Shown: in pieces, positions 460-50,649 of the stretch
How the letters are laid out: the number at the start of each line of letters is the position of its first letter
Numbering within the stretch: position 1 is the stretch's first letter
Assembly: GCF_007744515.1 (NCBI RefSeq)
Contig: NZ_CP036268.1
Coordinates: 4,396,833 to 4,460,832 of the forward strand
Origin: Stratiformator vulcanicus
GTDB taxonomy: Bacteria > Planctomycetota > Planctomycetia > Planctomycetales > Planctomycetaceae
Direction: 5' to 3'
DNA: 64,000 bases
Notes under the pieces: generated by a model
Database searches by the model: none
What the model was told of the DNA's origin: nothing
Seen by the model: only the letters and a program-made list of their open reading frames with translations
Program-made: the position numbers and the translations under genes

Positions 460-1782
460 ATGAAAAAATTTAACGCAACTGACGTTTTCACTCCGAGTAC
501 TCCGGCCAAGGTCGCGTTCGTCGAACGAGAACAACCGAGGAATCAACTAGTCGATGCCATCATTACACCTGGAATGCAAATCGTGGTCTATGGCCACAGC
601 GGATCGGGGAAGACAACCCTGATCCATAATAAACTGGAGCAAACTCGGGAATTCTGGATTAAAACGAGTTGCACATCCGCTTCAACCATCGATTCGTTGA
701 TACTCGACGCATTCGACAAGCTCGGACCATATTACAAAGCCGAATCAACCGAGAAACGAACACGTTCTGCAAGTGCGAACATCAAGTCCTCCTACCTCGA
801 TTGCGAAGCCCAACTCTCCAGCTTCCGCTCATATTCTGAATCCGAGACGCAGAAGCGAGTACTACCTCCTCAAATCACAATGCCGCGGCTGATAGACTTC
901 CTCGGAGAATCAGGCGCACTGTGGATCGTAGAAGATTTTCACAAGCTACCACCACAAGAGAAGAAGAAATTCGCGCAAATTCTAAAGCAGTTCATGGATG
1001 CTTCAGCCGAGTATAGAGAAATCAAGGTGATAGCCATTGGAGCCAAGAAAACTGCCCGTGAAGTGATAGAATACGACCCCGAGATGGAAAACCGGGTCGC
1101 TGAAATTTATGTACCGCTCATGGATCGAAAAGAGCTATTCCAAGTCATCGGAATAGGAGAAGATAAACTGAATTGCGAATTCTCAGCAAAACACACGGAT
1201 TTAATAGCGAGACTAAGTAATGGCTTAGGTGCAGTTTGCCACCAATTATGCTTAAATATGTGCTTTGAAGCAAACCTTTCAGTTACTGAAAAAGACACTG
1301 TTTATTTTAAAGACGAGCATTTTGATGCAGCCTTGGCACGATTTTTGTCCGACAAGTCAGACACATTCAAGAAACAGTATGAGAAAGCAACTCGCCGGAA
1401 GCAGTCAGGGAAATTTGACAATTGCAAATTGATCGTGCATGCGATTGCTGAAATGGGAGAGGACGGCGGTACTTACGCCGAAATCCTTAAACATATTCAC
1501 ACCAGCCATCCGAAGTATCCAGCGGGAAACTTAACAAATTATCTTAAGCAATTGCAAACACCCGAACGGGCAGAAATTATCAAGCAAGACTCCGCATCCG
1601 GTCGATTTTCGTTCTTTAACCAGTTCATGAAAACATACGTGTACATGCTAGCTCGAAATGAAGACTCGACGTCTATGAAACCCCAAACGAAGCTCATTGA
1701 GGGAAAAGTGTCTTTTCAAGTGAAGTTCAACGCCGAAGGAAAGCTTGTTTTGGTCCGAAATAGGAAACCAGACCGCGACTGA
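460..1782 (+). CDS. P-loop ATPase, likely accessory cargo gene
   Basis: 440-residue protein with a clear Walker A motif, GHSGSGKT (residues 45-52), and a Walker B-like strand LWIVEDF (about 154-160) ending in acidic residues. The layout resembles AAA/STAND or Orc1/Cdc6-like ATPases: a short N-terminal lead, an ATPase core to about residue 290, then a region that could be a winged helix (around 320-380). No effector domain is recognised. The gene is visibly more AT-rich than the phage-like genes beside it and is the only plus-strand gene of the island, converging on the DUF2213 gene. That fits a horizontally acquired cargo gene, possibly for defence, but this role is inferred from position only. 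Confidence 0.7.
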   Translation: MKKFNATDVFTPSTPAKVAFVEREQPRNQLVDAIITPGMQIVVYGHSGSGKTTLIHNKLEQTREFWIKTSCTSASTIDSLILDAFDKLGPYYKAESTEKRTRSASANIKSSYLDCEAQLSSFRSYSESETQKRVLPPQITMPRLIDFLGESGALWIVEDFHKLPPQEKKKFAQILKQFMDASAEYREIKVIAIGAKKTAREVIEYDPEMENRVAEIYVPLMDRKELFQVIGIGEDKLNCEFSAKHTDLIARLSNGLGAVCHQLCLNMCFEANLSVTEKDTVYFKDEHFDAALARFLSDKSDTFKKQYEKATRRKQSGKFDNCKLIVHAIAEMGEDGGTYAEILKHIHTSHPKYPAGNLTNYLKQLQTPERAEIIKQDSASGRFSFFNQFMKTYVYMLARNEDSTSMKPQTKLIEGKVSFQVKFNAEGKLVLVRNRKPDRD

Positions 1783-2700: not shown

Positions 2701-2727
2701 CGGGTTCTCCTTCGAGCGAAAAAGTGA

Positions 2728-2829
2728 TCGAACTAATTAAATAATGTCTCAGAGGCGTCGGATCGTTGCGGAACTAATTAAATTAAATAAACAAATACCG
2801 AAACACCGGCCATTATTTATTTAATTCGA
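2728..2829. repeat. AT-rich motif cluster (GAACTAATTAAAT)
   Basis: The motif GAACTAATTAAAT occurs at 2730-2742 and, extended by TAAATAA, at 2771-2790. A third AT-rich block follows at about 2810-2829. Near-identical copies lie inside the primase gene (6942-6958) and inside the integrase gene (8966-8982). In this GC-rich island these blocks stand out. They lie just upstream of the minus-strand DUF2213 gene and could be binding sites or insertion footprints. Confidence 0.6.
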
Positions 2830-2842
2830 TAAATTCGGCGGA

Positions 2843-3358
2843 CTAGATCAGAATCTGGTTAAGGCGTTCTAATGCGGCGGAGAGGGCGTCGGCCTGAGCC
2901 TTGTCGGCGGCTAATTGCTCGGGGCTAGGAGGTGGATTCAGTTCGTTATCTACCTTCGCCAGTTCTTCCCGGTACTCTTCGACCATCCCCTTAAGAGCAA
3001 TAAGTTGCCGCTCAATATCCGGGCTAGGTACAGAGCCGTACGCAATACCTCTCTTCGCACGGTCCCGTAGATCGTCGAACTCCCGGACTGCCCGGTTAAG
3101 CCGGGTCTGCCAATACTGCTTCTGATTACTGAGCACCCGCAACTTCAGGTCGTGGTGATCGAAGTGATCCGGGTTATCGAGGGTGAGCGGATCAGGCCGC
3201 CACCGCATCACATAAAGGCCATTGCTGACCTCTAAGTAAGAGCCGTCCGGGAGCATCGCTCGCCGACCGTCCTCCGTCATCACGAGGTTATCGTATCCCC
3301 CATGCTCCTCGCAGAAGGAGATGACATCGTCCATCGAGAAAGCCATCGTCGTTAACAT
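2843..3358 (-). CDS. Hypothetical phage-island protein with coiled coil
   Basis: 171 residues, no recognised family. The N-terminal 70 residues are mixed and rich in aromatic and acidic residues. The C-terminal half is charged and helical (roughly residues 80-165, with repeated Arg/Glu/Leu spacing) and probably forms a coiled coil. The gene starts 9 bases after the terminase stop codon, in the same direction, so it is probably cotranscribed with packaging genes. A head-completion or scaffold-type role is possible, but nothing in the sequence proves it. Confidence 0.6.
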   Translation of the reverse strand: MLTTMAFSMDDVISFCEEHGGYDNLVMTEDGRRAMLPDGSYLEVSNGLYVMRWRPDPLTLDNPDHFDHHDLKLRVLSNQKQYWQTRLNRAVREFDDLRDRAKRGIAYGSVPSPDIERQLIALKGMVEEYREELAKVDNELNPPPSPEQLAADKAQADALSAALERLNQILI

Positions 3359-3367
3359 TCTTAACTC

Positions 3368-4777
3368 CTAGAATAAGGCACCGAGAACTCTCCGGCCTTT
3401 AGCAGCAACGAACACCGAGCCGGCAACGGCATTCGCAAGATCGTCGTGTCGTCCTTTGGCGTGGTCGATAATGTCCTTGCCGCCGGATCGCGTTCGTCTC
3501 TCAAGTCCGGCCAGTTGCTCTATTAAAGTCTCACTATCCAACAACTCCAACTCCCCCGGAGATATTATACGCGGGAGAAGTTCTAAATATAGCTCCGAAC
3601 GATTCGCTTTCGCCCGTTCATATCGGATGCCATTCCTCTTAAACCCGGCTACAACGAACTCGGCTGAATAGTTATCCCCCGTGACTCTCGTTAGCCCCCA
3701 GCGTTTAAGCTCTTCCGACATCCGGCGGATTACGTCGTTAGGATCGAAGGGTGCTTTGTAGAACGCGACTTTATCAAGAATTATCTTCTCATTATCCTTG
3801 TGAGCGAGGGCTAGCGCGGCGTCGTCAATTCGTCCCCCGCTAAGGTCAGCGAAGGCGTGATATTTCAGGTGCTCTCTCGGGCCGAGTTCTAGTCTACCCT
3901 TAATCACGGCGGCTTCGATGATGGGCCGGGGGAGGTAATCCGCTACGTCGTCTCTCCATTCGCCTAGGTACTCTGCCAAGGCCGCTGAACGATCCTCGGC
4001 CATCGCCTGATCGACTATCTTCTGCGGAAGCGTCGGGTTGAGAACTCGGCTAGGAGCATTGATAACGAGAGTCGAGGGAGAGTTGTTTCCAAAGTGCCGT
4101 TCCCACGTCTTAAAGGCCCATCCTTTCCGAGCATAGGGGCTACTGATAGCGATCAGCTTTCCGTTCGCCGTAGCTAGTGCGGGTTTCAAGGCTCTGACTA
4201 GCTCGGTGTCGGATTTGATATGAGTGTCCTCCTCGACCCCGAAGAACGCGACCTCATCGACGATTGCGGCGAGAAGGGTAAAGCCACGAGTTGTCTTCCA
4301 ATCCCCCGCGAGCATTTCGATCCGCACACCGTTGAGGAGTGTAAATCCCTCCTTTGTTTCCTCCTTGACCTGCGCTTTGAGGATAGGAGAGGAATCGAAA
4401 GCCGCTCTAATATATGACCGGACGATCCGCGATTGCTTTAAGGACGGAGAACAGACGGCGACCAAAGGTATCTCTCCCGGTGATAGCTTCTTCTCCCTAC
4501 CACTACAGGCGGCTTCATAGGCTGCTATCGTCGCGGCAATCCGGCTCTTACCTGACCGCCTACCGGTGAGGGCCAGAACCGAATCGAACCCCTCAGCCGG
4601 TAGCTTCCCTACGTCCCGCCCGCCGGTCACTTCGGCGAAGCCTGCGGGGTCGGTTGCGGGAAGACCGTAGATGGCGGCCAAGATGTCGAGCCAACCGGTC
4701 CAGCTATCAAGTCCTTCTCCGTTGTCGAGGAAGGAGCGGAAGAGATTAGGGTCGTTGATCGTTTCGAGGATGTTCAC
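3368..4777 (-). CDS. Phage terminase large subunit
   Basis: 469 residues with both terminase halves. The packaging ATPase has a Walker A-like GRRSGKS (72-78) and a Walker B ending in DE (174-175, context [10 protein letters not shown]). The C-terminal RNase H-like nuclease has candidate metal ligands at D311 (HAFADLSGG), in TGDNYSAEF (about 365-373) and in HDDLANA near the end. This enzyme normally translocates DNA into proheads and cuts it. Its start overlaps the stop of the upstream small gene by four bases (ATGA), which supports translational coupling with a small terminase subunit. Confidence 0.88.
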
Positions 4778-5193
4778 TGGTCGGTTCCGTTCGTGAGGTA
4801 GCTATTGAGGTCGATCGGCTCGGGTTTCATGTCCAGCCCGAGTTCCTTGATCGCCTTGTCGCGCTCGGTCGAGGCGCGGGCTATTTCTCGACTGAACTGG
4901 AGGCGTTCCGTTGGCTTGAGCACATCGGCCTCCTTGTTGAGCCATCGAAGGGCGAGCGCTCCGTGCCGCTCCCACTTAATGGCCGTCTGAATTGCGGCTG
5001 CGTCCATGAGGCTGATCTCTCCTTTGAGGCCAACCACCGCATCCTCGATTTGTCGCCGGAGCTTATTGATCTGGACCTCGATATAGGCCGCGTTCTTCGG
5101 GAGCTTGCCCGCCTTGAGGCCGTGCCGCAGGTTGTTACGGTTTCCCGGCTGCCCTCCGCGCTTCGGGCTATCGTCTTTAGAGGTTTCGCTCAT
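4774..5193 (-). CDS. Probable terminase small subunit
   Basis: 139 residues beginning with a basic, Gly/Asn-rich segment, [17 protein letters not shown], of the kind seen at the N-terminus of many phage small terminase or related DNA-binding proteins, followed by predicted helices up to residue 130. It overlaps the large terminase gene by four bases, the usual gene order for TerS-TerL. No full family signature is seen, so the call rests mainly on position, size and the N-terminal motif. Confidence 0.6.
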
Positions 5194-5221
5194 AAGGGGT
5201 TTCGTCCTTCCGGGTCGTCTA

Positions 5222-5241
5222 TACGCCTCAAAATCGGCGTA
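5222..5241. promoter_or_regulatory. TACGCC/GGCGTA inverted repeat upstream of terminase operon
   Basis: TACGCC (5222-5227) and GGCGTA (5236-5241) form an inverted repeat with an 8-base spacer, in the 229-base gap upstream of the terminase genes (minus strand). The same hexamer pair is found at 105-118 and at 10369-10408, in other intergenic parts of the island. It is a candidate operator for an island regulator. The rest of 5194-5422 shows nothing clear. Confidence 0.35.
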
Positions 5242-5422
5242 AGTTGTCCGGGCGATAGTTTCGGATTCCCGGTTTTTACTAGGCGAGGTCGTGGTTTCGG
5301 ATCGGCTTAGAAAACCGATGCTCTACTTTTCTCTTGTATTTTCGAGGTCTTCCGGGGTTAGGCGGGTCGAGTCCGGTCTCCGGTCTTATCCTCCCTCCCC
5401 CTCTCTCGCCCCTTTTCCTTAC

Positions 5423-5725
5423 TCACTTCGCCGGTAACTCAAAGTGGTTTACATATAAGATACATAGCACCTCCGACTCGCTGTCGGGGTAATATCGCGG
5501 AGCGTCTTCCTCCAAATATATTGTTCTATTGGGGTATTGAATGGCATAGCTGTAATAGTCGTAGTTCCTTCTCTTAAAGACCGTACATAATCGGCCCTTA
5601 ATCGAACGCACGAGGTTTCCATTCGAGTTCCGGCACCACCTCTCTACGTCTTGAATGTCGCGCTGAAGGGATTGGTTCCGGGCGATTCGAGTTTCACGAT
5701 CCGGGCACGAGCCGATCCGGGGCAT
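5423..5725 (-). CDS. Hypothetical small protein
   Basis: 100 residues, no recognised family. Rich in Arg and Tyr, with a basic N-terminal half and an acidic C-terminal half (YYPDSESEVL near residue 85). It begins one base after the stop of the primase/helicase-like gene, so it is the last gene of the minus-strand operon from 7900. A replication accessory or regulatory role is plausible by position only. Confidence 0.5.
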   Translation of the reverse strand: MPRIGSCPDRETRIARNQSLQRDIQDVERWCRNSNGNLVRSIKGRLCTVFKRRNYDYYSYAIQYPNRTIYLEEDAPRYYPDSESEVLCILYVNHFELPAK

Positions 5726-5726
5726 T

Positions 5727-7646
5727 TCAATTCTCCTTTACGACAAGAGACCAATACTCGGTCGGTCGACCGCGACCCTCGGGACTGACCTTCGTTTTCT
5801 GTACTCGACCCGCTCCGACTAATGCTTCCAACGTCGGCCGCAGTTCATTAGCCGAGACATTCAGCGTGCTGTAGAAATCTGATGTCTTAAGTCGACCCTC
5901 CCGCAGTCGGTCGAGTACCTTGTCAGCGAGTGTGACTGGCCGCGTGCGTGCGTCCTTAAAGAGGATCGCGGCGGAGTCAATTGAGTACTGCCAAACGGCC
6001 AGAGCCGCTCTCAGGTGGACAGGCCAGACGATCGGGCAGCAATCCATCAGGGCGTAGAGCAACGCAAGACGGAGTACGATTGATTTGCCGCGTGCGGTGA
6101 CCGCGCCGACCAACCCCTCCTGCTCCCGCCGGAGTTCGGGATATACCTGATTCCAAAGGGCTTTCGCTTCCGGCGATAACTCAACACCGTCTCGGTCGCT
6201 GGCGAAGTCGATCGCTTGCCGGAATTGCCAGATGAAACCGTTCAGCAGCTTTTCAGGAGGAGGATCGGCGAGCGGCATTACCTTGTCGGACTCAACCAGC
6301 CAAATCAGGAATCGGTTCAAGAAGCCGTTGACGGCCTCGATGCCGGGGATGCGGTCCTTGAACTCTGCGGGCGTGATATGCCCGATGACGGAGATATGAG
6401 CACCCGAGACGGTTCTCGGATTGACGGTGAGCGTCGACAGATTGCCGGAATCGTAAGTCTCCCGGAGAATCTGACTGAGAATGTTAGTCTCCCGTTTCAT
6501 ATTGGCGAGGACGCGGCTGAACTCCGGTTCGAGGACCCAGAGTCTTTTGTCCGTGATGACGAGTTCGTCTTCGCCGTCTTCGCCTTCCGTCCAAACATCT
6601 TGAACCTGCACGATGAGCCCTTCGCCGGATGAAAGGCCGCTCGCCTTGCGGTCTTTGTAGAAGTCCGGGTAGGCGCGAGAGAGGGCAAGACCAGCCATCG
6701 TCGCCGACGTACCTTTAAGACCGGTTGCCGTGCGGCCCACGACTAAGGTGTTAATCCGCGCCGGTTGCCAGCCTCCGGCCCAAAGGCGCGGACCGGGACC
6801 GATGATCGCTCCGGTGGCGGAAAGCAAGTGGGCGAGGATTCCGGCGGCAGTGGCCTCTGTATAGGGCGCGATCGCGTCTATGTAGTCGCCGAATACGCCG
6901 TGGAGTGCCGTTCGATCGAGAGTCGGCGTATCCGAATTCGCCGAACTAATTAAATTAAGAGAGTTATGTCCGCCTCGAATCGGCGCTGCCGAATTAACTA
7001 GTAAATTTAATTTTCTCGGTCCCTCCTCCACGAGAAGGTCGTCAACCCCGTATTTCTCCCCGTTCGGCGACGGGGGCATGGCGACGTGAAAGACCGTACG
7101 AACCCCCGCAGCGTATAACGCTTTCGCGAGTCGAGACTTGGCCTTCTGGACGTTCTCGCGTGTGGTGGGTTTCTCGTCGAAGTCGAAAACAACGTAAACT
7201 TCTCGACCCTGTAGCGGCAGCGCGGCGATGTCGGCAATCGGTTCGCCGTTACTCTGTCCACATTCGACACCTCCGATCCCTACCGCAGCATAACCTTCCT
7301 GCGCGAGGGCCAGCGCCTTCTTTTCCCCCTCGGTGATGAAGAGGGGCTGACCTTCGTCCTTGAGTTTTTTGATCGCCGCGATTGGGAAATATGCTCGCGG
7401 GGGACTTCCGGCTGGTTGCTCGTATTTGATGATCTTTCCGCTGTCGGTGACGCGCGGATTGTGAGGCTTCTTACGGCTGAAATCGTTGAACTCGCCGTTG
7501 AGGTTTGGGTACGGAAAGACGAGATTGGTTCGAGTTCGATCCGTGTGGATTCGGTTCGCCTTAACCGTCTCATACGTTAGGCCGGACGATTGAAGGTCCT
7601 TCAGATCGTACGCACTGACGGGTAGCGGTTCGGGAGCTTTCGGCAT
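5727..7646 (-). CDS. Toprim primase / DUF3987-like helicase fusion (island replication protein)
   Basis: 639 residues. The N-terminal part carries a Toprim/DUF3854-like primase module: FITEGEKKAL (E106, E108) and VVFDFDE (D155, D157) are the expected acidic metal ligands. A DUF3987-like region follows with a P-loop-like GRTATGLKGTS near residues 303-313. The C-terminal 70 residues look like a winged helix. Such proteins initiate replication of satellites, phage-plasmids and integrative elements. The start codon overlaps the excisionase-like gene by one base. An AT-rich insert (DNA 6942-6958) encodes LNLISSANS and resembles an insert in the integrase. Confidence 0.8.
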   Translation of the reverse strand: MPKAPEPLPVSAYDLKDLQSSGLTYETVKANRIHTDRTRTNLVFPYPNLNGEFNDFSRKKPHNPRVTDSGKIIKYEQPAGSPPRAYFPIAAIKKLKDEGQPLFITEGEKKALALAQEGYAAVGIGGVECGQSNGEPIADIAALPLQGREVYVVFDFDEKPTTRENVQKAKSRLAKALYAAGVRTVFHVAMPPSPNGEKYGVDDLLVEEGPRKLNLLVNSAAPIRGGHNSLNLISSANSDTPTLDRTALHGVFGDYIDAIAPYTEATAAGILAHLLSATGAIIGPGPRLWAGGWQPARINTLVVGRTATGLKGTSATMAGLALSRAYPDFYKDRKASGLSSGEGLIVQVQDVWTEGEDGEDELVITDKRLWVLEPEFSRVLANMKRETNILSQILRETYDSGNLSTLTVNPRTVSGAHISVIGHITPAEFKDRIPGIEAVNGFLNRFLIWLVESDKVMPLADPPPEKLLNGFIWQFRQAIDFASDRDGVELSPEAKALWNQVYPELRREQEGLVGAVTARGKSIVLRLALLYALMDCCPIVWPVHLRAALAVWQYSIDSAAILFKDARTRPVTLADKVLDRLREGRLKTSDFYSTLNVSANELRPTLEALVGAGRVQKTKVSPEGRGRPTEYWSLVVKEN

Positions 7647-7900
7647 TAGTAATACTCCCGGACTGCCGGGTTCCGCTTTCGACGCTTGCGAGCCGGTCGC
7701 TGTTTTTTTGTCCGCCGGGCGATGAAGCCCTCCAGATCATCCGGATGGACCCGCCACGTCGGTCTACCGCCCGGTTTCAAGCTCACATCGATCCCGCGTA
7801 GTTGGTCGCTGTTGATGAGATCGACGACCGAGTGTTGGCGGATGCCGAGCCGTTCGGCGACCTCCGCCGTCGTGAGTAGTTTGTCGAGTTCAATATCCAT
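7646..7900 (-). CDS. Excisionase-like helix-turn-helix protein
   Basis: 84 residues with an N-terminal MerR/AlpA-type winged helix-turn-helix: LLTTAEVAERLGIRQHSVVDL followed by a wing with GGRPTWRVHPDDLEGFI, then a very basic tail. This is the usual form of excisionases or AlpA-like activators in phages and satellites. It shares one base with the downstream primase gene and lies downstream of a repeat cluster at 7972-8076. It probably controls excision and/or expression of the replication operon; which of the two is inference. Confidence 0.75.
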   Translation of the reverse strand: MDIELDKLLTTAEVAERLGIRQHSVVDLINSDQLRGIDVSLKPGGRPTWRVHPDDLEGFIARRTKKQRPARKRRKRNPAVREYY

Positions 7901-7971
7901 CGCCGAACAGCCGTATTAAGTCGCGGGGAGTCGCGGCCAGCCGTAATCGACGGCCTCTACCCTGCTCCGGT

Positions 7972-8076
7972 CGTTTCGTTTATTTCTGCGACGAAACGCT
8001 ACTCGGACGTAGATCGTAGGGACGGCGCAAAAGAAAAGCCGCTCCGCGTTTCTTTATGACGCGAAACGGCGAAACG
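7972..8076. repeat. CGAAACG repeat cluster, candidate origin or operator
   Basis: Within 105 bases the heptamer CGAAACG occurs at 7992-7998, 8062-8068 and 8070-8076, its inverse CGTTTCG at 7972-7978 and a shorter inverse CGTTTC at 8047-8052. CGTTTCGT and ACGAAACG (7972-7979, 7991-7998) form an 8-base-pair inverted repeat with an 11-base spacer. The cluster lies directly upstream of the excisionase-primase operon, where satellites often have iterons of a replication origin or operators. Confidence 0.5.
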
Positions 8077-8088
8077 GGGCGATCCGAC

Positions 8089-8892
8089 TTAGTCCGGGTC
8101 GCGTTCTTCATAGCTGGCGAGGCGGCTGGGGAGTTCGCGGTTAAGGAGCGACAGCGTCATCGCCAATTTCCCGTTCACGCACTGAGCTTTGTAGCCCTTG
8201 TAGCCGCTGAAGTGCTTCTCGAAGAAGCGCGATAGGGAAGCCGCAGAGAAGTCATTCTGAGGAAGATCGGCGAAGGACTTGACGGCGATTGGTTCGTCGT
8301 TGAGTAGCGATCCGTTGTCGTACCCGTGGTGCCGAGAGAGAGCAGCGATAATCAGCGTCTCCTTATCAGACTCGCCCTTGGACGGTCGCCCCCTACGTTT
8401 TGTCGAGGCGTTGATTCTCGCATTTTGCGTCGTTGTATCACGCTCCGCGAGTTTCGCCCGCTCACGCTGGAGGGAGGCTTGCATCCGGCCCGCGTCGATC
8501 AGGTACGCGGCGGATCGTTCGGCGAGTAGGCGTCGGCCTCGGTTGATGAAATCGGCTTCGTCGAAGGCGTCGGCTTGTTCGTCGACCGACAGCGGACCGA
8601 GTAGGACCGTTACCGCAACGCAAGCAATCTCCAGCATCGCCGCGTGCGCTGAGGGGAATGACCGAGAACCGAGATAGCCGTGATGCGTGATAACGGAATC
8701 GGCGACAGCGGCTAGTCTTTTGTAGTGTCCCTCGATCGCAGTCCGTCGCTCATCGGTCAGTTCGGATCGAAGCTGGTACATGAGGCCGAAGGCTGCTCCG
8801 ACGTCGCCGCGCTCGGCACAACACCGAATATCGGCGAGTAGTAGCGTCCACTGTTCGGCAGCCTCGGAAGCCTCTCGGAATGCGTCGCTCAT
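8089..8892 (-). CDS. Hypothetical island protein
   Basis: 267 residues, no recognised family. The N-terminal 150 residues are helical and rich in Ala, Arg and Glu. A short basic stretch, KRRGRPSKGESDKE (about 165-178), looks like an AT-hook-type linker (RGRPSK), and the last 80 residues contain a compact region ending near the C-terminus. The gene starts on the last base of the integrase stop codon (TAATG), so the two are translationally coupled. DNA binding is suggested by the AT-hook-like motif, but its role is unknown. Confidence 0.6.
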   Translation of the reverse strand: MSDAFREASEAAEQWTLLLADIRCCAERGDVGAAFGLMYQLRSELTDERRTAIEGHYKRLAAVADSVITHHGYLGSRSFPSAHAAMLEIACVAVTVLLGPLSVDEQADAFDEADFINRGRRLLAERSAAYLIDAGRMQASLQRERAKLAERDTTTQNARINASTKRRGRPSKGESDKETLIIAALSRHHGYDNGSLLNDEPIAVKSFADLPQNDFSAASLSRFFEKHFSGYKGYKAQCVNGKLAMTLSLLNRELPSRLASYEERDPD

Positions 8893-10301
8893 TAGGCAAC
8901 CTCCCCGCCGTCGAAGATGCGGAGCGTCGGCGGATCATCGGCGGCGGCTCCCGGCCCCGATTCCGTCGAACTAATTAAATTAGTTAAATTAGGTCCCGAG
9001 TCGCCGACATTCTTTAATTCTTTTAATTTCTTCGGTGGTTCCGGCTCCCCTCCGAACAGCCATCGGCGAACGTGGTCGGTAACGGCGCGAAGTCGGTCGC
9101 GTCCGACCCTTTCCCGATATACCGCCGCCATCGAGTCGTCGGCGTGCCCCATTATGTAGTCGACCGAGACCTGGTCCTTAGTCTCCCCGGCGATCGTCTC
9201 GAAACCGTGCCGTAGTGCGTAGAAGCCGATGCCCGGTCGCTTGATTCCGAGCGCGGTTATCGCCTTGTTGAACTCCTGCCCGATACCGTCGCTGGGCGAG
9301 CCGTTCGGATTCGATTTCACCCAGCGCGATCCCCTTTCGGTCACGAACAGCAAGTCCGCGTCGGCGGAGTCTTTCACGTCGATCCCCTTCCTCACGTCCA
9401 TCCAGTCCCGCAACGCCTCGACAGTCTCCGGCCAAAGAGCGAACTGCCGCTCAACCTCAGTTTTTGGACGCGGGTAATCGACCCAGCCCGATTCGAGGTC
9501 CACGGCGTCAATCGGAAGATTGCTAAGGTCGGACTGACCCAGCCCTCCGTTCGCGGCGAGTAGGACCATCGCAATAACCGGTCGGTGAGGCTTACGTCTC
9601 GGCTTCGGCTCTGACTCGCCCGGCTCCCGTAGGTCTTCCCCCCGCAGGTAGGAGAGGACGAGCCGAATCTCGTGAGGCTCCCACATACGGTCGCCCGACT
9701 CCTTCCGCGCGGCCCTACGCTCGCGCCGGATGATCCGGGCTGATGGTCGCTTGAAGTCGGAACCGAATACGATTGGCTGCTGGATCATCGCATTGTCGAG
9801 GGCGTACTTGAAGACCGACCGAACCCTCTGAATGACATTACGTTCGGCGACGGCTCCCCGAGTCTTAGTGATCTCTTTTCGGAGTCGCTTGAAATCGGCG
9901 GGTCCGAGATTCGTCACCGCTCGATTCGGACCGAATACCTTCACAATGAGGTCGGTTACGGCTCGGTAGTCGCCGAAGGTCCGGGGGCTGATCCGGTCCT
10001 CATCACGATCGTCGGCCTTGGAAGTGAGGAAGTGATTCGCGAGGTCGCGGATCGTCAGTTCATCCGGTTCCGCTTTCGGGGCGGGCTTACGACCGGCGTA
10101 CAGGTCCTCCTTTTCGTCCAGCCACCGCTCAAGGCTCGCGTCGCCTTGCGGGTCTTCCGTCCACTTCTCGAAATAGTGGACTTTGTTGCGAACCTTCTTC
10201 GCCCAGCGGCCACAAGCATGAGCGTACAGCGGAAAGTCGGGACGTGGTTTCTTCGGTCGGCTGGCAGCGGAAGACTTCGTTCGGTTAGAATCCGTAGACA
10301 T
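8892..10301 (-). CDS. Tyrosine recombinase / integrase
   Basis: 469 residues. The C-terminal catalytic domain shows R364-H365 (LRHGFE), the GHAD histidine H386 and the nucleophile Y395 (AAVYRE). A SAM-like core-binding domain precedes it (about 70-190). The usual first catalytic arginine of the TGLR motif is not seen; the aligned segment is GGLGQSDL, with Gly255 at that place. I recall similar substitutions in other planctomycete integrases. The gene sits about 165 bases from a tRNA-Arg, which fits integration at that tRNA. The C-terminal tail has an AT-rich-encoded NLTNLISS insert. Confidence 0.88.
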   Translation of the reverse strand: MSTDSNRTKSSAASRPKKPRPDFPLYAHACGRWAKKVRNKVHYFEKWTEDPQGDASLERWLDEKEDLYAGRKPAPKAEPDELTIRDLANHFLTSKADDRDEDRISPRTFGDYRAVTDLIVKVFGPNRAVTNLGPADFKRLRKEITKTRGAVAERNVIQRVRSVFKYALDNAMIQQPIVFGSDFKRPSARIIRRERRAARKESGDRMWEPHEIRLVLSYLRGEDLREPGESEPKPRRKPHRPVIAMVLLAANGGLGQSDLSNLPIDAVDLESGWVDYPRPKTEVERQFALWPETVEALRDWMDVRKGIDVKDSADADLLFVTERGSRWVKSNPNGSPSDGIGQEFNKAITALGIKRPGIGFYALRHGFETIAGETKDQVSVDYIMGHADDSMAAVYRERVGRDRLRAVTDHVRRWLFGGEPEPPKKLKELKNVGDSGPNLTNLISSTESGPGAAADDPPTLRIFDGGEVA

Positions 10302-10465
10302 AGGGCACCTCTCTCTTAGCTGGGGTAGGTGTTCTCGGGAGTTCGCCCGGTTCCAGCGGGCGGCTCCCTTTACGCCTTCGATTCTAAACCGGCGTAACTA
10401 TCGGCGTAAGCGGCTTTCGGAAGGAAAACACGGATTCGCCGTAATCCGTTACTAGAAAAAGACTT
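10302..10465. promoter_or_regulatory. Integrase upstream region with GGCGTA repeats
   Basis: The 164-base gap between integrase and tRNA has TACGCC at 10371-10376 and GGCGTA at 10391-10396 and 10403-10408, the hexamers also found upstream of the terminase operon. This is a likely promoter/operator region for the integrase and may include the attachment site. No copy of the tRNA end was found on the left side of the island within the window. Confidence 0.35.
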
Positions 10466-10539
10466 GCACCCGTAGCTCAACTGGATAGAGCACCGGTCTT
10501 CGGAACCGGGGGTTGGGGGTTCGAATCCCTCCGGGTGTA
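10466..10539 (+). tRNA. tRNA-Arg (anticodon TCG)
   Basis: A full cloverleaf can be drawn by hand. The acceptor stem is GCACCCG/CGGGTGT (first pair G-T). The anticodon stem CCGGT/ACCGG holds the loop CTTCGGA, giving anticodon TCG. A five-base variable loop follows. The T stem GGGGG/CCCTC encloses TTCGAAT, and the discriminator is A. CCA is not encoded. The gene borders the integrase and is the likely integration target of the island, though the island lies on its 5' side. Confidence 0.93.
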
Positions 10540-10836
10540 TTCGCTGTTCTCTCTGCGATTCTCGGCATGCGGTTCTCTGCTCTGTGTCGTTCGGTCTGAA
10601 GAGTCAGATCGCCGTTGCGGTCCGGAATCAATGGATCGGTGCCGATTGCGGCTTCGATTCGCTACAGGGCCTCGGTGGCGGCCACGATGAGCCGCAGCTG
10701 CTGCAACAACGGCAATTCGGCCCGCAATTGGTCTGGTCGCAATCGCGCCAGCCCTGCTATCACCCGCGCTTCGACCTACCGCGATGACGGAACGGTACTT
10801 GGCGTCAACCCAGGCGAATTCCTCGGGATCCGCAAT
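10540..10836. other. Gap between tRNA and SIS isomerase gene
   Basis: 297 bases with no supported gene. An open frame runs in from 10615 in phase with the isomerase, but its first 74 codons have no family similarity and a low-complexity Arg/Ser/Ala make-up, so I treat it as leader. Confidence 0.5.
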
Positions 10837-48900: not shown

Positions 48901-50008
48901 TCGAACAATTAGATTTCGACGCCTCCGTTGGAAAGCGATGACGCGCGGCTGGGACATCTCGGCGACGGCGGAACCCGGCGTGACGAACGCGGAGTTAGAG
49001 TTCTGCGATGACGAGCCGCTGCGGTTTATCGCCGAGCCAAGGCCCGAGCCGATCATCAAGATCGACGATGCCCCCACCACACCAGCCCGCAGCGCCAGCA
49101 AGGGACGTAACCCTGTGCCGCCCGCATCGCTCTGGCGGGTGGCCCTCGCGCTGACCCTGTTGCTCTCCGGCGGCCTCATCGCGGCCACAACATTCTTCAC
49201 CACCGGCGGAGCGACCGCCGCGGTTGCTCAGAACGCCGCGCCGACCCCCGAGATCGACACCTCACACCGCAAGCCGATCGAGGAGATTGCAGCGGGTGAC
49301 CGCGTTCTTGCCCGTGATGAGCACGGCGCAGCGATCGGCTGGCGCGAGGTCGAAGAGGTCTTCGAGCGCACCTCCGACCACCTGCGGCACTTAAAAATCC
49401 GCAGCGACGCCGGCGACGTGCAGAACTTCGAAACGACCGACGAACACCCCTTCTGGTCGGCCACTCGTGAAGCATGGATCGACGCGGGCGACTTAAAACC
49501 GGGCGAAAAACTCACCGGCCCGAACGGTGAGAGCTTCACCCTCGTCCTGACGCAACGCGAAGCGCACCCCGAAGGGGTCACCGTCTACAACTTCCGCGTC
49601 GCCGACGCCCATACCTACTACGTCGCCGCCAACAACAACCCCCGCGGCCCGCCGGTGTTGGTGCATAATGCGGAGTACAAGCCGGGTGATGTCCAACGCA
49701 ATGCGCTTGATGCGGATAAATACCCTGAAGCTGCTAAGCATCTCAAGGACGCCAACGGCGTCGGCAAACCACTAACTGTTGATAGACTGGGTGCGGATCG
49801 GCGTCGCCGCGAGGCACTGAAAAGTGTACCCACGAAGCCTCGGTTGGATCGTGACGAAGCACCGCCAGCCGTCTTTGCCGAAGGAAGCACTAGCGTGCGT
49901 CACATTCCGCCTTCTGACAATCGCGGAGCTGGCGCCGTCATCGGAAATAAGTTGCGGGGCATTCTGGATGGTGCAAGAGTTATCATTGATCTTATTTCAG
50001 GGTCATAA
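48887..50008 (+). CDS. Toxin cassette III: R2-type Hint and NucA/NucB-like DNase
   Basis: 373 residues; GTG 48887 overlaps the end of the DUF4304-like gene. From RWKAMTRGWDISAT on, it repeats the giant protein's pre-Hint, transmembrane (SLWRVALALTLLLSGGLIAA) and Hint segments up to VHN (259-261). The Cys block A of the giant protein's Hint is missing. The last 112 residues carry D323-E324-A-P326, VRHIPPSDNRGAGAVIGN, then LRGILDGARVIIDL, the NucA/NucB DNase signature. With no export signal, it is probably a reserve toxin tip that can replace the AHH tip by recombination; direct expression is not excluded. Confidence 0.82.
   Translation: MFQSSRTIRFRRLRWKAMTRGWDISATAEPGVTNAELEFCDDEPLRFIAEPRPEPIIKIDDAPTTPARSASKGRNPVPPASLWRVALALTLLLSGGLIAATTFFTTGGATAAVAQNAAPTPEIDTSHRKPIEEIAAGDRVLARDEHGAAIGWREVEEVFERTSDHLRHLKIRSDAGDVQNFETTDEHPFWSATREAWIDAGDLKPGEKLTGPNGESFTLVLTQREAHPEGVTVYNFRVADAHTYYVAANNNPRGPPVLVHNAEYKPGDVQRNALDADKYPEAAKHLKDANGVGKPLTVDRLGADRRRREALKSVPTKPRLDRDEAPPAVFAEGSTSVRHIPPSDNRGAGAVIGNKLRGILDGARVIIDLISGS
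48927..49677 (+). repeat. Direct repeat R2, copy B
   Basis: Second copy of the 751-base pre-Hint/Hint segment in the same direction as copy A (45551-46301), starts 3376 bases downstream. No net insertion or deletion, and the reading frame matches, so crossing over would join the giant protein to the NucA/NucB tip in frame. Confidence 0.9.
49082..49105. repeat. Short interspersed repeat (PARSASKG type), coding copy 2
   Basis: Identical core AGCCCGCAGCGCCAGCAAGG to copy 1 at 45706-45729, carried along within repeat R2. Confidence 0.6.
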
Positions 50009-50016
50009 TTGAAATA

Positions 50017-50649
50017 ATGAATATCACAAAGCAAGTGCGATCCCTTGAGAAATTGAAAATATTTGATTCACGAGGTTTTTTGCCTGATTTGCCTGACTCC
50101 ATCACACCTCGGCTACAACGCGAGTTGAAAAGTCTTTATAATAATTTTAATGGATTTTCTGCGTTCGGGGGTGCGATGCATTGTTTTCCATCCAAAGCAA
50201 GCGAAAGAACAGACATAACTTCTTGGAACAAGAATGAGCTTTGGAAGAACCGATACCCGATCGATTTAAAACACGTGCTTTGCTTTGCACAATCGATCAT
50301 TGGGGATCAGTATTGTATTGTGGGCGAAAAGGTGGGACGGTTTGACCCTGAAACAGGTGACGTAGAAGCGATCGGCACGTCCCTTAAAGAGTGGTTCGAC
50401 GTAATTAATGAGGAGACAGACTTCGCAACCGGTAGACCCTTGCTTCTCGAACGGGAAGAAAACAATGGTCTAGTACCTGATCACAGTTTATTGATTCCTA
50501 AGATACCGTTTGTTTGTGGTGGCCAATTTTCAGTTGATAATGTTGTTGCAGTTGAAGCAGTCAGGGCGATGCGGATCCGTGGTGGGATTGCAAGTCAGAT
50601 TCACGGCCACCCAGACGGAACTGTCTTTGAGTTCTCGTTCGATGAGTGA
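50017..50649 (+). CDS. SUKH/SMI1-KNR4-like immunity protein for cassette III
   Basis: 210 residues, starting eight bases after the cassette III stop. LYNNFNGFSAFGGAMHCFPS and VGRFDPETGDVEAIGTSLKE are in the style of SUKH/SMI1-KNR4-type or Tdi1-like immunity proteins. The sequence is AT-rich in contrast to the Hint-coding DNA next to it. It follows the NucA/NucB-like toxin directly, so it probably blocks that toxin. The last codons overlap the GTG of the R1-B fragment. Confidence 0.72.
   Translation: MNITKQVRSLEKLKIFDSRGFLPDLPDSITPRLQRELKSLYNNFNGFSAFGGAMHCFPSKASERTDITSWNKNELWKNRYPIDLKHVLCFAQSIIGDQYCIVGEKVGRFDPETGDVEAIGTSLKEWFDVINEETDFATGRPLLLEREENNGLVPDHSLLIPKIPFVCGGQFSVDNVVAVEAVRAMRIRGGIASQIHGHPDGTVFEFSFDE

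What the first reader, a model, noticed from the sequence alone, without database searches (positions are those of the whole stretch)
2728..8990. Recurrent AT-rich motif GAACTAATTAAATTA inside and between island genes
The motif occurs at 2730-2742, 2771-2790, 6942-6958 and 8966-8982. Two copies lie inside genes on the minus strand, where they encode NLISS-type inserts in two unrelated proteins (primase, integrase). Such a strong repeat in a GC-rich island suggests footprints of a small mobile element or sites for an AT-binding protein. Similar but weaker AT blocks lie at 2810-2829, 6991-7013 and 9011-9030.
Basis: seen in the sequence. Interest (0 to 1): 0.55.

Follow-up and report, generated by a model that had tools for sequence, protein, structure and literature searches.

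The report
Repeated AT-rich sites in mobile island
A small mobile DNA element in a planctomycete bacterium carries three clusters of a repeated AT-rich DNA motif, two of them hidden inside protein-coding genes; the motif looks like a set of protein-binding sites, most likely the element's own replication origin, and not like a footprint left by a smaller mobile element.

Summary
The repeat is real. GAACTAATTAAATTA occurs three times exactly and once with one mismatch, all inside a 10.5-kb integrated element (39-bp att repeats in tRNA-Arg), and nowhere else in the 5.2-Mb chromosome at 0-1 mismatch. The copies form three clusters (E1 intergenic, E2 primase linker, E3 integrase tail), each with a weaker inverted partner. 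The signal is at DNA level: E1 is non-coding; only one frame per strand of the motif is stop-free, so the shared 'NLISS' is forced; and in a scan of the nine minus-strand genes the four windows with the most AT-biased synonymous codons are the four arms of E2 and E3. The three nearest primase relatives (37-47% identical) also carry AT-rich sites in the same linker, and all three have a comparable site just past the primase stop. Arms are conserved between clusters; spacers and flanks are not. The primase is a TOPRIM protein with an MCM-like AAA+ domain and a C-terminal winged helix. Best explanation: element-specific initiator-binding and unwinding sites (replication origin), as with lambda ori inside gene O. 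DNA-level sites are well supported; the origin role is inferred (about 0.5). A mini-transposon footprint is disfavoured.

The parts
2722..2839 (-). E1: intergenic cluster of three AT blocks (2729-2744, 2770-2798, 2810-2836) about 41 bp apart; the motif reads GAACTAATTAAAT(T/A)A on the + strand, the third block is inverted
   Evidence: least stable 60-bp stretch of the 64-kb window
6942..7016 (-). E2: inverted pair of AT arms (6942-6957 and 6992-7016) inside the primase interdomain linker
   Evidence: synonymous AT excess ranks 2 and 4 of 2519 windows; model disordered at residues 225-237
8967..9032 (-). E3: AT arms (8967-8992 and 9009-9032) inside the C-terminal tail of the integrase
   Evidence: synonymous AT excess ranks 1 and 3 of 2519 windows; absent from five other integrase tails
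5727..7646 (-). Primase-helicase, 639 aa: DUF3854 (TOPRIM-like), linker, DUF3987 (MCM-like AAA+), C-terminal winged helix; proposed initiator
5727..5969 (-). Last 80 residues of the primase: winged-helix domain, proposed to bind the sites
8892..10301 (-). Tyrosine integrase (Phage_integrase)
7646..7900 (-). HTH_17 protein (excisionase-like); rival candidate for binding the sites
10466..10504 (+). att repeat, right copy (5' half of tRNA-Arg, which spans 10465-10540); the left copy is L042 19944-19982, about 20 bases left of the window; element 10,521 bp

Best explanation
The motif is a DNA-level, element-specific binding site, and E1-E3 are pairs or triplets of such sites. Together they most likely form the replication origin region(s) of the integrated element. 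After excision, the element's own primase-helicase (TOPRIM, MCM-like AAA+, C-terminal winged helix) would recognise the AT-rich dyads, the AT-rich blocks would melt, and the helicase would load. Two clusters sit inside genes because sites were placed where the protein tolerates any peptide (disordered primase linker, integrase tail), in the one stop-free frame. Shown: the repeat, its restriction to the element, AT-biased synonymous codons, inverted-pair layout, AT sites in the same linker of three relatives, domain folds of the protein. Inferred: that the primase-helicase binds the sites, and that they are an origin.
For: Strong non-chance repeat confined to the element. E1 non-coding, single open frame, and the four top synonymous-AT windows of 2519 are the E2/E3 arms. 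Arms conserved, spacers and flanks not. The three closest primases (L074, L075, L076) have AT sites in the same linker and just past the primase stop; L074 shares the 14-mer AACTAATTAAATTA, 0 in 1000 shuffles. Linker holds the ORF's most AT-rich 18-mer in 4 of 4 closest against 9 of 73 others. E1 is the least stable and E3 the third least stable 60-bp stretch of the window. MCM-like AAA+ (Z 18.3, 254 residues) plus winged helix. Precedents: lambda ori lies in gene O, iterons of inverted symmetry beside an AT-rich region (PMC6022878, passages); DUF3987 predicted as helicase of mobile elements and C-terminal winged helices of such primases proposed to recognise origins (PMC5862659, passages).
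Against: No binding or replication data. Sites are spread over 6.3 kb, and this element has no site just past its own primase stop, unlike the three relatives. The integrase-tail cluster has no counterpart in five other integrases. In L075, L074 and L076 the number of linker-like repeats does not pass the maximum of their own shuffled controls, and the synonymous-codon excess of the linker is only rank 4 and 6 in L075 and rank 4 in the L076 element. Only four elements show the pattern; more distant DUF3987 loci do not. The winged helix may serve oligomerisation or fork binding, as in MCM.
Confidence: 0.5

Rival explanations
1. Operators for another DNA-binding protein of the element (for example the HTH_17 protein at 7646-7900) or of a helper phage, timing early and late transcription.
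For: E1 lies directly upstream of the DUF2213 protease gene; inverted pairs suit dimeric regulators; an HTH_17 protein is encoded.
Against: E2 and E3 lie deep inside genes, far from gene starts; no promoter-like match falls in E1-E3 (sigma-70 consensus only); relatives have the sites around the primase gene in particular.
Confidence: 0.22
2. Footprints of a small palindromic mobile element (about 85 bp, ends CCGAA..AATTAAA), inserted in frame twice and once between genes, in the way of Rickettsia palindromic elements (recalled).
For: The three units align over about 85 bp better than all of 1000 shuffles, with terminal inverted similarity; the integrase tail looks like a gain.
Against: No further copy in the chromosome at 0-1 mismatch or of the composite in 296 other class genomes; spacers do not match; no target duplication seen by eye; relatives have other AT sites in the same primase linker, not an empty site.
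Confidence: 0.15
3. Boundary sequences that promote modular recombination between related elements: AT motifs sit at domain or gene borders.
For: All three clusters lie at borders: interdomain linker, C-terminal tail, intergenic gap; in relatives sites flank the DUF3987 half of the primase gene.
Against: No phylogenetic break at the sites was tested; motif sequence differs between elements, which would hinder recombination between them.
Confidence: 0.08
4. RNA-level feature (hairpin, terminator, processing site) or AT drift in unconstrained linkers.
For: Arms can pair in RNA; E1 has z -2.6 on the minus strand.
Against: E2 and E3 fold little better than shuffles on the coding strand (z -1.2 and -0.7); of 17 terminator-like sites one weak one (2797-2810) lies inside E1 and none in E2 or E3; drift does not give an exact 15-mer three times.
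Confidence: 0.05

Closest known systems
Phage lambda origin (oriλ) inside gene O (PMC6022878, passages)
   Same: Repeated inverted-symmetry sites and an AT-rich stretch written inside the initiator gene, at a place where small in-frame deletions are tolerated by the protein
   Different: Lambda has one compact origin with four iterons; here there are three clusters over 6.3 kb, one in the integrase gene and one intergenic; the putative initiator is a TOPRIM/MCM-like protein, not an O protein; binding is not shown
Satellite phage P4 alpha protein with ori and crr (recalled; not read here)
   Same: Satellite-like element with a primase-helicase carrying a C-terminal DNA-binding domain, and more than one cluster of sites apart from each other
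   Different: AAA+ domain here is MCM-like by structure comparison; the P4 origin-binding domain is not among the 50 rows shown for the winged helix, which excludes nothing
Primase-helicase fusions with DUF3987 and C-terminal winged helix in mobile elements (PMC5862659, passages)
   Same: Primase plus DUF3987 AAA+ plus C-terminal winged helix; winged helix proposed there to recognise origins
   Different: Those primases are of the archaeo-eukaryotic kind; this one has a DUF3854 TOPRIM-like half; no sites were described in the passages seen
Rickettsia palindromic elements (recalled; related papers seen in listing only)
   Same: Short palindromic sequences found inside coding genes in frame
   Different: Those are dispersed over the chromosome; this motif is confined to one mobile element and its spacers are not conserved

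Membership tests
Replication origin with initiator-binding repeats | Several copies of a short site, non-chance, confined to the replicon | tested here: met
Replication origin with initiator-binding repeats | AT-rich, easily melted DNA beside the sites | tested here: met
   E1 least stable and E3 third least stable 60-bp stretch of the window
Replication origin with initiator-binding repeats | Initiator or helicase with a DNA-binding domain encoded by the same replicon | tested here: met
   MCM-like AAA+ and winged helix by model; binding itself not tested
Replication origin with initiator-binding repeats | Initiator binds the sites and replication starts there | not testable with these tools
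   needs gel shift, plasmid replication and marker frequency
Small palindromic mobile element (RPE or MITE type) | Copies dispersed over the host chromosome | tested here: not met
   all copies at 0-1 mismatch in one island; composite pattern in none of 296 other class genomes
Small palindromic mobile element (RPE or MITE type) | Whole unit, spacer included, alike between copies | tested here: not met
   arms alike, spacers and flanks at shuffle level
Small palindromic mobile element (RPE or MITE type) | Target-site duplication or empty site in relatives | tested here: inconclusive
   no duplication seen by eye; five integrase tails lack E3, three primase linkers hold other AT sites

The most novel reading that the evidence does not exclude
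A family of planctomycete integrated elements in which an MCM-like primase-helicase reads element-specific AT dyads that are written into the codons of its own interdomain linker and repeated just past its gene, so that initiator and origin specificity travel and diverge together; in this element the sites have also spread into the integrase tail and an intergenic gap.
Probability: 0.35. Interest if true: 0.6.

Novelty: new variant of a known kind. Interest (0 to 1): 0.42.

Why it matters
If true, it gives a readable rule for finding replication origins of uncharacterised planctomycete satellites and prophages, and a bacterial MCM-like initiator with a predicted, testable binding site. It is also a clear case of DNA function overriding codon choice inside two genes, where the shared peptide could be mistaken for a protein motif.

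Tried and rejected
Peptide motif (NLISS) reading: rejected, since E1 is non-coding and only one frame per strand is open. RNA hairpin or terminator: not consistent over the three clusters. Mini-element: see rivals. Arm sites of the integrase: rejected by distance, E3 is over 1.4 kb from the att repeat. Wider family: of 80 loci handed to, 3 had no DUF3987 match; in the 77 analysed the linker holds the ORF's most AT-rich 18-mer in 4 of 4 closest and 9 of 73 others. Of 82 loci handed to, 9 had any repeated linker site, and only this element exceeded its control maximum (for L075 the control keeps the repeats within the linker, so it is severe). The first repeat scan and the 11-mer scan of 30 loci gave repeats in L044 (this island), L046 (the L075 element) and L073. 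Extended exact motif in viral contigs: 0. Terminase scan of viral contigs: no relative. Integrase scan of viral contigs: 3 loci, without AT pairs in the tail. Phage records: no near DNA match; by protein 19 records, none with 80% of the query. Papers: searches; I saw listings for all of them and passages for PMC6022878 and PMC5862659 only. The DUF3987 search (12 of 3,387 papers listed) showed me no paper on origins in DUF3987 genes, which is no proof of absence.

Full report
Observation. The motif GAACTAATTAAATTA is at 2771-2785, 6943-6957 and 8968-8982 exactly, and at 2730-2744 with one mismatch. Allowing three mismatches gives 8 matches in 64 kb against 0.27 expected; no shuffle of 100 reached 8. 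The weaker AT blocks are present. In the host chromosome, a single contig of 5,228,745 bp, all four copies at 0-1 mismatch fall in this island; one 2-mismatch copy lies elsewhere. Among 40 genomes (own included), searched at up to 2 mismatches, the matches outside this genome all have 2 mismatches and are no more frequent than a reversed control pattern. A composite pattern (14 bases of the motif, 20-50 bp, TTTAATT) occurs three times here and in none of the other 296 class genomes searched.

Setting. The island is an integrated element of 10,521 bp between 39-bp direct repeats that are the 5' half of tRNA-Arg. On the minus strand it carries a tyrosine integrase, an unknown gene, an HTH_17 protein, a primase-helicase, an unknown gene, a gene placed like a small terminase subunit (no family match), a large terminase, an unknown gene and a DUF2213 protease-like gene; on the plus strand an AAA ATPase that matches the candidate defence model PDC-S59. 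No capsid, portal or tail family was reported among the ten proteins scanned, so it resembles a satellite more than a full prophage (inference).

Anatomy. The copies form three clusters. E1 (2722-2839) is in the gap between two genes and has three AT blocks about 41 bp apart. E2 (6942-7016) lies in the primase and E3 (8967-9032) in the integrase tail; each is a motif with a weaker inverted partner. The three units align pairwise better than every one of 1000 shuffles, but their spacers do not (shuffles at least as good: 338, 69 and 241 of 1000) and neither do the outer flanks of E2 and E3 (437 and 375 of 1000). So the arms are what is kept.

DNA level, not peptide. E1 is not coding (and the sequence). 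TAATTTAATTAGTTC has only one stop-free frame on that strand, so a coding copy must read N-L-I-S. A scan of synonymous AT excess over 2519 windows of eight codons in the nine minus-strand genes puts integrase residue 437, primase 211, integrase 422 and primase 227 in the first four places; these are the four arms of E3 and E2. The test with fixed blocks agrees (P 0.0002 to 0.005 for single arms here, but only 0.03 to 0.10 for L075 and L076); those blocks were chosen for being AT-rich, so it is the weaker test.

Relatives. Of 297 class genomes 59 have a primase match at E 1e-20. The three best besides the window's own are L074 (Schlesneria MAG, 47%), L075 (Gemmataceae MAG from Lake Baikal, 44-46%) and L076 (Gemmataceae CJuql4, 37-39%) (organism names, where the same contigs are L084, L086 and L085). 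All three have AT-rich DNA in the same linker. L075 has AATTAAAATAATT at 9551 and 9596 in the linker and inverted at about 10801, just past the primase stop at 10790. L076 has GAGCAAATTAAA in the linker and again just past its stop. L074 has AACTAATTAAATTA at its primase stop, a 14-mer shared with the window element and found in none of 1000 shuffles, and AATTAGTTCGAT in the linker, also shared. In all four the linker holds the most AT-rich 18-mer of the ORF, against 9 of 73 other analysed loci, which is about what the length of the linker window would give by chance. The synonymous-codon scan puts the linker first in L074 (of 1967 windows) but only 4th and 6th in L075 and 4th in the L076 element. 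A count of linker-like repeats in 82 loci gave this element a clear excess (5 against a control maximum of 3), while L074, L075 and L076 did not pass their own control maxima. The core AATTAAA is 9 against 0.9 expected here and 4, 3 and 2 against 0.8, 0.4 and 0.1 in the relatives; only the first exceeds all 300 shuffles, and the core was picked after looking.

Protein. AlphaFold2 (20 sequences, mean pLDDT 80, pTM 0.56) gives an alpha/beta N-terminal half, a stretch of very low confidence at 225-237, a large AAA+ domain and a C-terminal winged helix. By sequence profile the N-terminal half matches T7-type primase/helicase TOPRIM parts (best E 0.0003). The AAA+ domain matches MCM helicases (Z 18.3, rmsd 3.2, 254 aligned; Foldseek E 2.5e-9). 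The winged helix modelled alone (pLDDT 82) matches TFIIE and MarR-type domains (E 4e-4 and 1e-3) and transcription factor E 1q1h by profile (E 5e-6). PMC5862659 (passages) predicted that DUF3987 domains fused to primases are helicases of mobile elements, and proposed that such C-terminal winged helices recognise origins.

Mechanism. The best reading is that E1-E3 are initiator-binding and unwinding sites of the element's replication origin(s). E1 is the least stable 60-bp stretch of the window and E3 the third. The placement inside the initiator gene repeats what is known from lambda, whose ori lies in gene O with iterons of inverted symmetry beside an AT-rich region, and where small in-frame deletions of the AT-rich region leave O able to complement in trans (PMC6022878, passages). 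Binding and origin function are not shown here. Against it stand the spread over 6.3 kb, the lack of a site after the primase stop in this element, and the integrase-tail cluster, absent from five other integrases, which must be a later gain.

Verdict. It is a new variant of a known kind, moderately interesting, and testable by a gel shift.

Noticed in passing
window 460-1782 (+): AAA ATPase gene (AAA_22) of lower G+C at the far end of the element from the integrase; matches phrog_6841 and the candidate defence model PDC-S59, so it may be a defence cargo gene.
   Followed up: partly
window 10465-10540 and L042 19944-19982: The att repeat is the 5' half of tRNA-Arg up to the anticodon, so the complete tRNA at the right end takes its 5' half from the element side.
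   Followed up: partly
L075 about 1375-1450: Inside a host gene that looks like carB (name recalled from its sequence) there is a cluster of AAATTGCAAATTT-like repeats encoding LQISDLKLQ/NLQSEICNLQS peptides: a different, in-frame intragenic repeat in a Gemmataceae genome.
   Followed up: no
L137 about 8800-9400 (same place as L073): GAATTATCTTT repeats before the DUF3987 domain and further along the same primase gene; possibly a separate case of repeated AT sites in such a gene, but the locus is AT-rich and it is not's rows.
   Followed up: no
window 50005-50158: Three AT blocks close together outside the island; the least stable 100-bp stretch of the window is at 49980-50079. Not examined.
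   Followed up: no
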